From the NCBI RefSeq assembly GCF_007922615.2, contig NZ_CP042301.2, forward strand, positions 3,162,001-3,226,000: a DNA stretch of 64,000 bases, given 5' to 3'. Below the pieces are notes generated by a model that searched no databases, was not told where the DNA came from, and saw only the letters and a program-made list of their open reading frames with translations. How positions within the stretch are numbered: position 1 is the first letter of the stretch; the number at the start of each line of letters is the position of its first letter. The position numbers and the translations under genes are program-made. The stretch is from Nitratireductor mangrovi. GTDB taxonomy: Bacteria; Pseudomonadota; Alphaproteobacteria; Rhizobiales; Rhizobiaceae. Below are positions 50,815-60,906 of this stretch, piece by piece.

Positions 50815-52266
50815 TCACATCGTCCCCCTGATCGCCGGATAGAGCGCCCGGTAGCGTTGATAGGCCTCTTCAAAGGCTCCGGCGAGCGCGGTGTCGGGTT
50901 TGACCGTCGCCGCTGTCGCCGGCGCAGTACAGACAGAAAGCGGGTCAGCGCCCTCGGCAGCGATCAGGCCGAGCCGCGCCGCGCCGAAGGCGGCGCCGAA
51001 ATCGCCGTCGGCCGGTATGTCGACGGCGATGCCGAGCGCCGTCGCGATCGCCTTCTGCCAGTAGCGCGAGCGTGAGCCGCCGCCGATCGCCGTCACCCGT
51101 TCGAGGCGTGTTCCGGCTGCCTTCAGCGCCTCCAGATTGTCGCGCAACGCGAAGGCGACGCCTTCGAGCACGGCCCTGGTGAGGCTCGTCCTGTCGCTCT
51201 CGTGCCCGAGGCCGGCATAGGCACCGCGGATGGCGGCATCGTTGTGCGGCGTGCGCTCGCCGGAGAGGTAGGGCAGGAAGGTGACGCTGCCCGGCGCCTT
51301 GAGATCGTCGCCGAGTTCGGCGGTGAGTTCGCCGGCGGAGCGGCCGGTGACGCCGGAGAGCCAGTTGAGCGAATCCGTCGCCGACAGGATCACGCCCATC
51401 TGGTGCCAGGCCCCGGGCAGGGCGTGGCAGAAGGTATGGACCGCGCTTTCCGGGTTGGGCAGATAGCTGTCATTGGCGGCGAACAGGACGCCGGACGTGC
51501 CGAGCGACACGAAGGCCTGGCCGGGCCTCACCGCGCCCATGCCGCAGGCCGAGGCCGCGTTGTCGCCGGCCCCGCCGGCGATGACAACACCTTCGGCCAT
51601 GCCCCATTGCCGGGCGAGGTCCGGGCGAAGCGCACCGGCTGGCTGGGTTCCCTCGACCAGCGCCGGCATGTTCTCTTCCGACAGACTGGTCGCGGCCAGC
51701 AAATCGCCTGACCATGATCTGTTCTCGACATCCAACCACGAGGTGCCGGCCGCGTCCGACATTTCCGAAAAATGCCCGCCGCTCAGCCACAGCCTTAGAT
51801 AGTCCTTTGGCAAGAGCACCTTGCGCAGGCGGGCGAAAAGGTCGGGTTCGTTGTCGCGCATCCAGGCGATCTTTGGCGCCGTGAAGCCCGGAAAGACGAT
51901 GTTGCCGGTGATCCGGCGGAAGCGTGGGTCGGCGTCGAGTTGAGCCGCCTGTTCGTGGCTGCGGGTGTCGTTCCACAGGATGCAGGGCCTGAGCGGCCGG
52001 TCATCCTCGCCCAGCACCGTCGCGCCATGCATCTGTCCGGAAAGCCCGATGCCGCGCACGGCGGCGAGTTCACGCCCGTGCGAACGCTGCAATTTCCCGA
52101 TGGCGGTCTCTGTCGCCGCAATCCAGTCGGCCGGCGCCTGCTCCGACCAGCCCGGCCTGGGCCGCGACACGTCGAGGTCGCCCGTCGCCGAAGCGACGAC
52201 CCGCTGATCCGGGTCGATCAACAGCGCCTTGACCCCCGACGTGCCGAGGTCGAGCCCGAGATACAT
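50815..52266 (-). CDS. xylB: Xylulokinase
   Basis: Phosphorylates D-xylulose. The 483 residues of the FGGY family start MYLGLDLGTSGVKALLID, with the ATP loop GLSGQMHGATVL, the C-terminal signature GVAFALRDNLEALKAAG and IGGGSRSRYW. The ATG at 52266 follows CCGGGAGGAA. A 23-bp palindrome lies 47 bases upstream. Confidence 0.96.
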   Translation of the reverse strand: MYLGLDLGTSGVKALLIDPDQRVVASATGDLDVSRPRPGWSEQAPADWIAATETAIGKLQRSHGRELAAVRGIGLSGQMHGATVLGEDDRPLRPCILWNDTRSHEQAAQLDADPRFRRITGNIVFPGFTAPKIAWMRDNEPDLFARLRKVLLPKDYLRLWLSGGHFSEMSDAAGTSWLDVENRSWSGDLLAATSLSEENMPALVEGTQPAGALRPDLARQWGMAEGVVIAGGAGDNAASACGMGAVRPGQAFVSLGTSGVLFAANDSYLPNPESAVHTFCHALPGAWHQMGVILSATDSLNWLSGVTGRSAGELTAELGDDLKAPGSVTFLPYLSGERTPHNDAAIRGAYAGLGHESDRTSLTRAVLEGVAFALRDNLEALKAAGTRLERVTAIGGGSRSRYWQKAIATALGIAVDIPADGDFGAAFGAARLGLIAAEGADPLSVCTAPATAATVKPDTALAGAFEEAYQRYRALYPAIRGTM

Positions 52267-52312
52267 GACGGTTCCTCCCGGACGCGCCTTGACCGGCGCG
52301 CCAATCCTTGTA

Positions 52313-52335
52313 GCCATCTGGTCGGACCAGATGGC
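52313..52335. promoter_or_regulatory. Perfect 11-bp inverted repeat upstream of xylB
   Basis: Reads GCCATCTGGTC, G, GACCAGATGGC: 22 of 23 bases pair exactly. The TGGTC-G-GACCA core resembles the sites of FadR-type GntR regulators. It is 47 bases upstream of the xylB start, in a 275-base gap (52267-52541) with no other feature. A xylose-responsive or GntR repressor would fit. Confidence 0.72.
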
Positions 52336-56039: not shown

Positions 56040-56942
56040 TTAAACCGCGTGCCTCGCCAGAAACGGCATCAGCGCGGCAAGCGTCGCGGCCGGGTTCTCC
56101 TCGGCGATGAAATGACCGGCATCGATGCCCTGCCCTTCGACATTGTCGGCCCACTGCCGCCAGGTGTCGAGCGGGCCGGAGGTCGCGGACGGAATACCGG
56201 CGTCGCCCCACAGCGCCAGAAGCGGCGCCGCGATTCTGCGGCCGGCGGCAATATCCGCTTCGTCGATTTCGCGGTCGATGGTGGCGCCTGCGCGGTAGTC
56301 GTTGCAGGCGGCATGGAAATAGTCCGGCCGGGCGAAGCTTTCCCGGTAGACCGCCATGGCGCGCGGATCGAAGGCGGAAAGGTCCCTCGCCCTGGTCCAG
56401 GAGGCGATGGTGTAGTCGAGATATTTTTCCGGCGATCCCCCGAGCAGCATCTCCGGCAGCGGCTCGGGCTGGGCGAGCATGAACCAGTGGTAGGTCTTCA
56501 TGCCGAGCGCGGTATCCATCTGCCGCCACATCGCGGCGGTCGGCACGATGTCGAACACGGCGATGGCGATCACGGCGTCGGGATGATCGAACGCCATCCG
56601 GTAGGCGACGCGGCCGCCGCGGTCGTGACCGGCAACGACGAAGCGGTGATGCCCGAGCGAGGTCATGAGCCCGACCATGTCGGCCGCCATCGTCCGTTTC
56701 GAATAGGCCATGTTGCCGGCATCATTGGCCGGACAGGACGAGCGCCCGTAACCCCTGAGATCGGGCATGACGCAGGTGTAGCGCCGGGAAAGCTCGGGAT
56801 AGACCGCGTGCCACATGGCATGCGTCTGCGGGAAGCCGTGCAAAAGCAGGAGCGGCGGACCGTTGCCACCGATACGGGCGAAAATCGTCGCGCCATCGGC
56901 CTCGAAGGCATGATCGCGCGTGTCCTCAAAGAGGTTACTCAT
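56040..56942 (-). CDS. Fluoroacetate/haloacetate dehalogenase-like hydrolase
   Basis: An alpha/beta hydrolase of 300 residues. It keeps every catalytic and fluoride-pocket residue known for Rhodopseudomonas fluoroacetate dehalogenase, at a constant offset of 3: nucleophile Asp107, carboxylate-binding Arg108 and Arg111 (GHDRGGR), Asp131, His152-Trp153, Tyr216 and His277. Haloacetate release of halide in the cytoplasm is thus predicted. An epoxide hydrolase is less likely, since those use a tyrosine pair instead. The start at 56942 is chosen from the start MSNLFEDTRDHAFEAD. Confidence 0.88.
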   Translation of the reverse strand: MSNLFEDTRDHAFEADGATIFARIGGNGPPLLLLHGFPQTHAMWHAVYPELSRRYTCVMPDLRGYGRSSCPANDAGNMAYSKRTMAADMVGLMTSLGHHRFVVAGHDRGGRVAYRMAFDHPDAVIAIAVFDIVPTAAMWRQMDTALGMKTYHWFMLAQPEPLPEMLLGGSPEKYLDYTIASWTRARDLSAFDPRAMAVYRESFARPDYFHAACNDYRAGATIDREIDEADIAAGRRIAAPLLALWGDAGIPSATSGPLDTWRQWADNVEGQGIDAGHFIAEENPAATLAALMPFLARHAV

Positions 56943-57149
56943 CCGACCAGACTGCGCCGGTCGCCGCTCATGGTCAATCATGCCAAGGTGTCCGCACGCC
57001 TTCACCACGACGGTTGGCGGCCCTGCGAAGGATCGCGCGCTCGGCACTGCAGTACGTCGATCAGTTCCTGTTGGTGAACGGCTGTTAGCTTCTGGACCAG
57101 TCGATCTTGCGGTTGCAGCCCTTGTCCTTCGCCGCGAATAGCTCAAAGA

Positions 57150-57268
57150 TGAACCACCTTTCCGGGCATTCTCCTCCCATTTCTGCCCGGAAAGTGTTCC
57201 CCTCTGGAGGTTTGGCCCTGACGGGCACTTCCAATTTCTGGCCGGATCGAAAGATCCGGCCATTTTTT
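57150..57268 (+). ncRNA. Predicted small RNA with anti-Shine-Dalgarno loop, alpha-r14-like
   Basis: In the 431-base gap between two minus-strand genes, the plus strand can fold a perfect 10-bp stem (TTTCCGGGCA/TGCCCGGAAA, 57159-57168 and 57184-57193) around a 15-base loop that contains CTCCTCCC (57171-57178), the complement of a ribosome-binding site. A shorter imperfect hairpin and pyrimidine-rich stretch follow, then a canonical terminator (57239-57268). This is the layout of the Rhizobiales alpha-r14 (MmgR) and related CCUCCUCCC-motif RNAs. The 5' end is estimated. The rest of the gap (56943-57149) shows nothing. Confidence 0.72.
57239..57268 (+). terminator. Rho-independent terminator with GAAA loop
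   Basis: TGGCCGGATC, loop GAAA, GATCCGGCCA: a perfect 10-bp stem followed by six T. The T-run is on the plus strand, and no plus-strand gene lies within 3 kb upstream, so it must end a noncoding transcript. Confidence 0.9.
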
Positions 57269-57373
57269 CCCCTGGTACGATCCGTCAAGCCGTCAGCGGG
57301 TCGCTTGCATCGCAAGCCTCGCCGCCGGCACGGCACGCCCCCCAGTCTCCTCGAATGGGGCCAGCCGAGGCAA

Positions 57374-57769
57374 TTAGGGCTTCGGATCAGCCTTGAGATA
57401 GGCGATCACATTGGCGAGATCGGCATCGTCCTTGAGCCCCGGAAACGCCATCCTGCCTTTCGGGATAACCGACTTGGGATCGCGCAGATATTCCGTCAGC
57501 GTCTCGTCGTTCCAGACAAGGCCATCCGCGCCGGCTTCCTTGATGTTGGGCGAATAGCGTGGCTGGAAATCCTCCAGCGACCCCGCCACACGGCCAAAGA
57601 CGCCGACCAGGTGCGGCCCGACCTTGTTCTTCTCGGCCTCGGCGTCGTGGCAGGCGCGGCACTTGTTGAACACCTTCTTGCCTTCGACAGCGTCACCTTC
57701 GGCCAACGCGGGCGGCGCGGCGACCGCGAGGGCGAGGCAGGTCCAGGCAGAAAGGCTGATCGATTTCAT
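57374..57769 (-). CDS. Class I cytochrome c, periplasmic
   Basis: A protein of 131 residues with a signal peptide (SISLSAWTCLALAVAAPPAL, cut near ALAEG), a heme site CRACH (Cys37, Cys40, His41) and a methionine ligand near PKGRMAFPG (about Met107). This is a mitochondrial-type or c550-type electron carrier. The start at 57769 follows AGGAGGACTTCTGTC. A cytochrome oxidase operon is 1.3 kb away, so it could be an electron donor; both genes are on the minus strand. Confidence 0.94.
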   Translation of the reverse strand: MKSISLSAWTCLALAVAAPPALAEGDAVEGKKVFNKCRACHDAEAEKNKVGPHLVGVFGRVAGSLEDFQPRYSPNIKEAGADGLVWNDETLTEYLRDPKSVIPKGRMAFPGLKDDADLANVIAYLKADPKP

Positions 57770-59479: not shown

Positions 59480-60190
59480 TCACCACAGGTAGAAGAACGC
59501 GAAGATGAAGACCCAGACCAGGTCGACGAAGTGCCAGTAGAGACCCATGATCTCGACATGCTCATAGTCGCCGGGCCTGCTGGTGAAGAAGCCCTTGTCG
59601 CCGCGGTCATATTCGCCGCGCCATACCTTTCGCGCCACGATCAAAAGGAAGATGACCCCGATGGTGACATGGGTGCCGTGAAAGCCGGTGATCATGAAGA
59701 AAGTCGAACCGAACTGCGCCGCACCCCATGGATTGCCCCAGGGCCTGACGCCTTCCGAGATCAGCTTCGACCACTCGAAGGCCTGCATGCCGACGAAGGT
59801 CGCGCCCATCAGTGCGGTGAACAGGATCAGGATCACGGTCCATTTCTTGTCGCGCCGGTAGGCCGCGTTGACGGCCATGGCCATGGTGCCGCTCGACGAG
59901 ATCAGGACGAAGGTCATGATCGCGATCAGGAGCAGCGGCACGCTGACGCCGCCGACATGCAGCCCGAACACCTCGCTGGCATTCGGCCACGGCACCGTCG
60001 TCGACATGCGCGCCGTCATGTAGGAGAGCAGGAAACAGCCGAAGATGAAGGTATCCGACAACAGGAAGATCCACATCATCGACTTGCCCCAGCTCGCGCT
60101 CTTGAACGCGCGCTGGTCGGCCGACCAATCGGCGGCGATGCCCTTCAATCCGCTGGGGCGGTTCGATGCGGTATGTGCGGTATCGGCCAT
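59480..60190 (-). CDS. Cytochrome c oxidase subunit III, second copy
   Basis: A subunit III-like membrane protein of 236 residues. Conserved pieces: GFHGTHVTIGVIFLLI and the ending YWHFVDLVWVFIFAFFYLW, the subunit III signature. An N-terminal soluble start precedes the first helix. With the gene at 60202 this gives two subunit III-type proteins in one operon, as in coxMNOP of Bradyrhizobium, where coxO and coxP are both subunit III-like. Confidence 0.88.
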   Translation of the reverse strand: MADTAHTASNRPSGLKGIAADWSADQRAFKSASWGKSMMWIFLLSDTFIFGCFLLSYMTARMSTTVPWPNASEVFGLHVGGVSVPLLLIAIMTFVLISSSGTMAMAVNAAYRRDKKWTVILILFTALMGATFVGMQAFEWSKLISEGVRPWGNPWGAAQFGSTFFMITGFHGTHVTIGVIFLLIVARKVWRGEYDRGDKGFFTSRPGDYEHVEIMGLYWHFVDLVWVFIFAFFYLW

Positions 60191-60201
60191 TCCCCTTCCC
60201 C

Positions 60202-60906
60202 TCAGATCAGGAATTGACGGCAGACGGCGATGAAATCGCTCGCCCAGCCGGCCAGCACCACGAACATGGCCAGCCAGACGATGAACAGGAAATGCCAGTA
60301 CATGGCGCAAAGTTCGACGCCGAGTGTCAGCTTCTCGTCATGGGCGCCGCGAAAGGCGCTTGTCGTGGTACGCGACAGCGCCACGATGCCACCGACGATG
60401 TGTAGCCCGTGGAGTCCGGTGATCAGGTAGAAGAAGCTGTTGGCCGGGTTGCCGTCGAGCAGATAGCCCTCCAGCGACAGCTCGCGCCACGCCATCAACT
60501 GGCCGACGAGGAAGGCGAGCGTGGTAAGCGCCGCCGTCACCAGCGCCAGCCGCAGAGTGTCCTGATGACCCTTGCGCGCGGCCATGACCGCCAGATGCAG
60601 GGCGATGCTTGCCAGAAGCAGGATGCCGGTATTGAGCCACAGCACCCGCGGGAATGGCGGCGCCTGCCAGTCGACATACTCCATGCGCATGAAATAGGCG
60701 CTGGCGAACAGCGCGAAGAGTGCGCCGACCACCGCGAGGAAAACCACCAGCGCGATCTTGGCCGTCGGCTGATGGGTGACGTCACCGTCGGGATACGCCG
60801 CCGGAATGCCCTGCTCCAGCCACGGCTTCGAAGTGATGCGCTGCTGTAGCAGCCACCAGCCGGCCACGCCAAGCACGACCATCAAAAAGACGAGGATGAC
60901 GCTCAT
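60202..60906 (-). CDS. Cytochrome c oxidase subunit III, first copy
   Basis: A membrane protein of 234 residues with LITGLHGLHIVGGIVALSRT and MYWHFLFIVWLAMFVVLAGW, both subunit III motifs. Its start overlaps the ctaD stop by 4 bases (60903-60906), and it is followed 11 bases later by the second copy. The N-terminus is a single helix with a long polar part, distinct from the other copy. Confidence 0.88.
   Translation of the reverse strand: MSVILVFLMVVLGVAGWWLLQQRITSKPWLEQGIPAAYPDGDVTHQPTAKIALVVFLAVVGALFALFASAYFMRMEYVDWQAPPFPRVLWLNTGILLLASIALHLAVMAARKGHQDTLRLALVTAALTTLAFLVGQLMAWRELSLEGYLLDGNPANSFFYLITGLHGLHIVGGIVALSRTTTSAFRGAHDEKLTLGVELCAMYWHFLFIVWLAMFVVLAGWASDFIAVCRQFLI

What the first reader, a model, noticed from the sequence alone, without database searches (positions are those of the whole stretch)
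57150..57268. Unannotated small RNA with anti-Shine-Dalgarno loop and textbook terminator
The plus strand of a gap between two minus-strand genes carries a perfect 10-bp stem (57159-57193) whose 15-base loop holds CTCCTCCC, then a 10-bp stem with GAAA loop and six T. No plus-strand gene needs this terminator. The layout matches the alpha-r14/cuckoo type of Rhizobiales RNAs, with one base different from the CCUCCUCCC motif as I remember it. It may be a distinct member regulating translation by base-pairing.
Basis: partly seen in the sequence, partly recalled or inferred. Interest (0 to 1): 0.82.

Follow-up and report, generated by a model that had tools for sequence, protein, structure and literature searches.

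The report
Second AbcR-type regulatory small RNA
The gap holds a gene for a small regulatory RNA of a known bacterial family (AbcR, Rfam ar15) that most likely turns down nutrient-uptake genes by covering their ribosome-binding sites; it is an ordinary family member, but a diverged extra copy with an unusual promoter.

Summary
Plus strand 57156-57267 is a full-length match to Rfam RF02345 (ar15, the AbcR sRNAs), 47.1 bits against a gathering score of 40. It carries a 5' hairpin with CUCCUCCC in the loop, an exposed UUCCCCUC, a second hairpin, and a terminator with six U. These are the two anti-Shine-Dalgarno motifs published for AbcR1/2 (passages of PMC8844928).

The host is close to Nitratireductor. 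It has a second copy (37.9 bits, below the gathering score) in the canonical place beside a trxB-like and a vtlR-like LysR gene. The window copy is the dispersed paralogue, kept at the same place in two of three congeners although flanking genes changed.

It lacks the VtlR box that 23 of 45 ar15 copies examined carry 60-63 bases upstream, and also the RpoH-like TTGAA found in 13 of the other 22. It shares a CTGGACCA element with the second copies of its genus (4 of 4; none of 41 others).

New member of a known kind. Transcription itself is untested here.

The parts
57156..57268 (+). ar15/AbcR-type small RNA (proposed transcript about 113 nt)
   Evidence: Rfam RF02345, 47.1 bits, model 1-112 of 112, E 1.8e-6; fold z -6.3. 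The 5' end is inferred from the model start and the spacing to the proposed -10.
57158..57194 (+). 5' hairpin SL1, 11 perfect pairs, 15-base loop
   Evidence: the 5' hairpin forms in all 21 relatives folded although stem sequences differ
57171..57178 (+). aSD1, CUCCUCCC, in the SL1 loop
   Evidence: identical to aSD1 of S. meliloti AbcR1/2 (passages of PMC8844928)
57197..57204 (+). aSD2, UUCCCCUC, between SL1 and SL2
   Evidence: GUUC-CCCUCUGGAG columns invariant or nearly so in 21 aligned copies
57205..57233 (+). second hairpin SL2 (7 outer pairs, inner 4-pair extension)
57239..57268 (+). intrinsic terminator: 10-pair stem, GAAA loop, six U
57121..57150 (+). proposed core promoter: CTTGTC, 17 bases, CAAAGAT (weak -10)
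   Evidence: aligned with CTTGT[GT]-N17-[AG]CATATT in the syntenic copies of two congeners; inference, and the consensus scan does not find it
57092..57099 (+). CTGGACCA element, 64 bases before the sRNA; possible regulator site
   Evidence: in 4 of 4 second copies of the genus and 0 of 41 other ar15 copies; but the 8-mer occurs 4 times in the 64 kb window, 1.47 expected

Best explanation
It is a gene for an AbcR-type (ar15) trans-acting small RNA, the dispersed second copy of this genome. The RNA of about 113 nt most likely exposes two anti-Shine-Dalgarno seeds (CUCCUCCC in the first loop, UUCCCCUC between the first two hairpins), pairs with ribosome-binding sites of many mRNAs, above all those for solute-binding proteins and other uptake components, and so blocks their translation, probably with Hfq bound at the U-rich 3' end. 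The vtlR-linked copy would answer to VtlR; this copy lacks the VtlR box and so would answer to another signal. Shown here by computation: family match, structure, motifs, conservation and place, the missing VtlR box. Inferred: transcription, Hfq, targets, repression, the other signal.
For: Rfam ar15 above the gathering score over the full model; E 1.7e-8 when 601 bases are searched. Both published seeds present and predicted unpaired but for the first base of aSD2. In 21 aligned copies from 11 genomes the GUUC-CCCUCUGGAG block and CUCCC are invariant or nearly so while stems vary. ar15 copies in 4 of 4 genomes of the genus, two each, in 23 of 41 relatives and in 151 of 199 genomes of the family at E 0.001; with the same search none of 14 control genomes rings. 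Same place in G001 and G002: between a LysE gene and the cytochrome c / DUF2189 / COX4 / COX3 genes. Possible targets: of 39 ORFs of 80 aa or more that follow GGGAGGAG-N2-14-ATG in the own genome, 12 are uptake components (10 solute-binding proteins of ABC, TRAP or TTT type, 2 ABC ATPases), against 3 of 21 behind AAGGAGGA and 0 of 18 behind GAAAGGAG; 12 of 39 against 3 of 39 gives p 0.0097.
Against: No expression evidence. The score (47.1) is far below canonical copies (74 to 127 bits in the tandem loci listed). The proposed -10 is weak and the sigma-70 scan finds nothing. Target enrichment over the equally strong Shine-Dalgarno AAGGAGGA alone is not significant (12 of 39 against 3 of 21, p 0.14), so part of it may only reflect that solute-binding protein genes have strong ribosome-binding sites; for aSD2 only 2 of 13 ORFs are uptake components. 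The vtlR-linked copy has the same seeds, so target sites do not speak for this copy in particular. In the congeners G001 and G002 the orthologous copy has a shortened aSD1 (ACCUCCC) and G002 a changed aSD2 (UUCUCCUC). RNAalifold on the 21-copy alignment did not recover the three hairpins, only the terminator and a different pairing; I read this as misalignment of the variable stems.
Confidence: 0.88

Rival explanations
1. An ar14 (NfeR1/cuckoo) type sRNA.
For: Same kind of anti-Shine-Dalgarno loop; the sibling copy on the vtlR side even has CCUCCUCCC and gives a sub-threshold ar14 match (22.4 bits against 58.8).
Against: ar15 matches over its full length above threshold, ar14 not at all up to E 1; one motif-bearing hairpin instead of three; invariant aSD2 block of ar15 present.
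Confidence: 0.03
2. A decaying duplicate of the vtlR-linked AbcR gene, little or not transcribed.
For: Weak -10 (CAAAGAT where congeners have CATATT), lower family score than canonical copies, absent from this site in the third congener, loop shortened in two congeners.
Against: In the window copy all functional parts are intact: 11-pair stem, full aSD1 and aSD2, strong terminator; the site is kept in two congeners through rearrangement of flanking genes; it scores higher than the vtlR-linked copy of its own genome (47.1 against 37.9).
Confidence: 0.12
3. A cis element: leader, attenuator or antisense RNA for the neighbouring hydrolase or cytochrome c gene rather than a trans-acting sRNA.
For: It lies in the gap upstream of the hydrolase start and opposite to a possible read-through message from the cytochrome c gene.
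Against: The hydrolase gene is not at the syntenic places in G001 and G002, where the sRNA remains, and in G001 a heme-o-synthase-like gene and others separate it from cytochrome c; the conserved bases are the trans-acting seeds.
Confidence: 0.04

Closest known systems
AbcR1/AbcR2 of Sinorhizobium meliloti and Agrobacterium (ar15, RF02345)
   Same: Three-hairpin layout, aSD1 CUCCUCCC, aSD2 UUCCCCUC, U-rich terminator; two copies in the genome.
   Different: Those two are in tandem beside lsrB/vtlR (passages of PMC8844928 and PMC3712013); the window copy lies elsewhere, without a VtlR/LsrB box and without the TTGAA of the RpoH1 type promoter.
Dispersed AbcR1/AbcR2 pair of Brucella abortus
   Same: Two unlinked copies, one under VtlR and the other not (passages of PMC5461406); motifs CUCCCA and GUUCCC are both present in the window RNA.
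   Different: Whether the window copy is the orthologue of the VtlR-independent Brucella copy was not tested; no Brucella sequence was fetched as such.
NfeR1 (ar14, cuckoo RNA)
   Same: Anti-Shine-Dalgarno seed in a hairpin loop, same sort of targets (passages of PMC10746234).
   Different: Three identical CCUCCUCCC motifs in three hairpins there; here one CUCCUCCC plus a different second seed; no ar14 match.

Membership tests
ar15 / AbcR (RF02345) | Covariance-model score at or above Rfam's gathering score, full length | tested here: met
   47.1 bits against 40, model 1-112 of 112
[quoted passage not shown]
   definition from passages
ar15 / AbcR (RF02345) | aSD2 (UUCCCCUC) single-stranded between first and second hairpin | tested here: met
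   first U predicted paired
ar15 / AbcR (RF02345) | Rho-independent terminator with U tail, A/U-rich stretch before it | tested here: met
   the stretch before the stem is short (AUUUC)
ar15 / AbcR (RF02345) | More than one copy per genome | tested here: met
   second copy at G000:C1:2337556-2337670, 37.9 bits, itself below the gathering score
ar15 / AbcR (RF02345) | Place beside vtlR/lsrB (usual, not required: Brucella differs) | tested here: not met
   window copy is elsewhere; the sibling copy meets it
ar15 / AbcR (RF02345) | Transcribed, Hfq-bound, represses uptake mRNAs | not testable with these tools
   only candidate sites counted
ar14 / NfeR1 / cuckoo | Covariance-model match | tested here: not met
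   no ar14 row up to E 1 for 56900-57500
ar14 / NfeR1 / cuckoo | Three hairpins each with CCUCCUCCC | tested here: not met
   one hairpin with CUCCUCCC

The most novel reading that the evidence does not exclude
In this genus the second AbcR gene has been rewired to a new input. Across the copies examined, ar15 genes fall into a VtlR-box class and a class without it, most of which have an RpoH-like TTGAA -35; the window copy and its two syntenic orthologues have neither, and instead share CTGGACCA at the distance where VtlR binds in the other class. An unidentified regulator would use that element, so that one seed pair serves two or three different signals.
Probability: 0.25. Interest if true: 0.42.

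Novelty: new member of a known kind. Interest (0 to 1): 0.27.

Why it matters
It adds a well-supported, diverged AbcR gene in a marine/soil genus for which my one search that named the genus listed no AbcR paper (8 of 73 papers listed, none of the 8 holding the word Nitratireductor). It shows that reading loops by eye can find true sRNAs but can miss the family by one base. The more general point is the promoter split: the LsrB against RpoH1 division described for S. meliloti AbcR1 and AbcR2 (passages of PMC8844928) seems to hold for scattered ar15 copies in many genera, with the window copy as an exception.

Tried and rejected
ar14/cuckoo membership: rejected. Consensus folding of the 21-copy alignment with RNAalifold: did not give the expected hairpins because the stems vary and misalign; single-sequence folds used instead. 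I built no covariance model of my own and made no tree of the copies. Sigma-70 consensus scan: no promoter found. Site conservation outside the genus: no ar15 match up to E 0.05 in six DUF2189 loci of Mesorhizobium, Chelativorans and a Phyllobacteriaceae MAG, nor up to E 0.1 in the DUF2189 loci L290 (congener G003), L291 and L292. A first synteny run had the LysE query out of frame through my slip; repeated in frame with 84-85% identity for LysE. In one search my script's flag 'in hairpin loop' reads False for own_B, G001_B and G002_B because it found an earlier CTCCC; their printed structures have CTCCTCCC in the loop. Target counts: ORFs are mechanical, those under 80 aa were dropped (8 of 47 distinct GGGAGGAG sites, 7 of 20 GAGGGGAA, 12 of 30 GAAAGGAG, 9 of 30 AAGGAGGA), and for AAGGAGGA 30 of 34 places had loci. 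AbcR-vtlR feedback: see Noticed in passing; the control does not make it firm. The 45 upstream regions are not a random draw: 25 of the 38 matches, and 20 chosen from the capped list, mostly lower-scoring or unlinked copies.

Full report
What is there. The plus strand at 57156-57268 has three hairpins: an 11-pair 5' hairpin (57158-57194) with CUCCUCCC at 57171-57178 in its 15-base loop, a middle hairpin (57205-57233), and a 10-pair terminator with GAAA loop and six U (57239-57268); UUCCCCUC (57197-57204) lies between the first two. The fold is far better than shuffles (z -6.3, 0 of 200). The terminator alone would not be remarkable (one found, 0.7 expected).

Family. Rfam gives one match in the whole window at gathering thresholds: RF02345, ar15, 57156-57267, 47.1 bits (cut-off 40), full model length, E 1.8e-6. 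With lax thresholds on 601 bases the other rows are far below their cut-offs (NmsRb 23.4 of 52, Betaproteobacteria_toxic_sRNA 22.1 of 50, SorX 15.8 of 46.6), and ar14 is not among them. ar15 is the AbcR family. In passages I saw of PMC8844928, the two AbcR seeds are given as aSD1 CUCCUCCC in the 5' loop and aSD2 UUCCCCUC between the first two stem-loops: both are here letter for letter. PMC5461406 (passages) gives CUCCCA and GUUCCC for Brucella, also present. ar14 RNAs carry CCUCCUCCC in each of three hairpins (passages of PMC10746234; PMC3927594), which this RNA does not.

Host and copies. The DUF2189 protein next door is 79% identical to one of Nitratireductor arenosus and 78% to one of N. 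alexandrii; the same-genus genomes G001 and G002 have contigs of exactly the lengths of those two records. The own genome (4,855,325 bases, one contig) has two ar15 matches: the window's and one at 2337556-2337670 minus, 37.9 bits, below the cut-off but full length. The latter follows a LysR gene of 298 aa, itself following a pyridine-nucleotide-disulphide oxidoreductase gene (Pfam; read by me as trxB), the order trxB-vtlR-abcR given for Agrobacterium (passage of PMC7486931). That the LysR gene is vtlR is inferred from this order and was not tested against an experimentally studied VtlR. Each of the 4 genomes of the genus held has two matches; 23 of 41 relatives and 151 of 199 genomes of the family have at least one, and no control genome rings in those searches. 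(In the own-genome search at E up to 1, 8 of 14 control genomes rang, none over the cut-off.)

Conservation of the window copy. In G001 and G002 an ar15 copy lies at the same place, beside a LysE gene and near the cytochrome c, DUF2189, COX4 and COX3 genes. The hydrolase gene of the window is not there, and in G001 other genes lie between the sRNA and cytochrome c, so the RNA is kept while neighbours change. In G003 the DUF2189 locus has no ar15 match; its second copy lies elsewhere. Among 21 aligned copies from 11 genomes, CUCCC and most of GUUCCCCUCUGGAGG are invariant, the 5' hairpin forms in every fold, and stem sequences differ. In G001 and G002 the loop seed is shortened to ACCUCCC. I did not count compensatory changes formally: RNAalifold on the alignment did not recover the hairpins.

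Promoters. The VtlR/LsrB box published as GCAT-N3-TG-N3-T (passages) was sought 57-66 bases before 45 ar15 copies. It is there with at most one mismatch in 23 (18 exact, 5 with one mismatch), at -60 to -63; shuffled upstreams reach this in 1.5%. The vtlR-side copy of the own genome has it with one mismatch; the window copy is 4 mismatches away. Of the 22 copies without the box, 13 have TTGAA at the -35 place, like the RpoH1 promoter of S. meliloti abcR2; of the 23 with the box, none (p 7e-6; copies are not independent). The window copy and its two syntenic orthologues are among the 9 with neither. They and the second copy of G003 share CTGGACCA 58-74 bases upstream; none of the other 41 has it. 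A single 8-mer is weak evidence: it occurs 4 times in the 64 kb window against 1.47 expected.

Targets. In the own genome GGGAGGAG-N2-14-ATG occurs 51 times as places, 47 distinct sites, 39 of them with an ORF of 80 aa or more. Of the 39, 12 are uptake components: TctC, two Peripla_BP_4, SBP_bac_1, three DctP, NMT1, two Bmp, two ABC ATPases. Control Shine-Dalgarno words give 3 of 21 (AAGGAGGA) and 0 of 18 (GAAAGGAG). Against both controls together p is 0.0097, against AAGGAGGA alone 0.14. For aSD2 (GAGGGGAA) 2 of 13 are uptake components. This fits AbcR function but does not prove it, and cannot tell the two copies apart.

Verdict. A real sRNA gene of the known ar15/AbcR family, the dispersed second copy of its genome; a new member of a known kind. 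Its lack of both known AbcR promoter types is the only part a specialist might find new.

Noticed in passing
L112:8223-8240 (own genome, before the vtlR-like start); L115, L113, L117 at the same gene: The ribosome-binding site of the vtlR-like gene is complementary over 8 bases to an AbcR seed in 4 of 4 genomes of the genus (three to aSD1, one to aSD2). Over 36 vtlR starts 14 have 7 or more bases and 9 have 8 or more, against 19 and 6 of 69 control starts with a Shine-Dalgarno-like word (controls include some vtlR genes): a possible AbcR-to-vtlR feedback loop, not firm. A search for vtlR, AbcR and autoregulation and passages of PMC7486931 showed no report of it.
   Followed up: partly
window 60188-60203, minus strand: GAGGGGAA, fully complementary to aSD2, lies five bases before the start codon of the cytochrome oxidase subunit III gene about 3 kb from the sRNA: a possible local target.
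   Followed up: no
45 ar15 upstream regions: ar15 copies across the family split into a VtlR-box class (23) and a class without it (22, of which 13 have TTGAA at -35), also where the copies are unlinked.
   Followed up: partly
L125 (G017:C20:50330-50435 and 52220-52325, minus): Two further weak ar15-like RNAs (31 bits) near a strong copy, with changed seeds (UCUCCUCUGGAG instead of UUCCCCUCUGGAG): G017 has six ar15 matches in all.
   Followed up: no
L118:7125-7180: The second ar15 copy of G003 also gives a sub-threshold SorX match (31.5 bits of 46.6), as the window copy does more weakly: the ar15 3' half resembles SorX of Rhodobacter.
   Followed up: no
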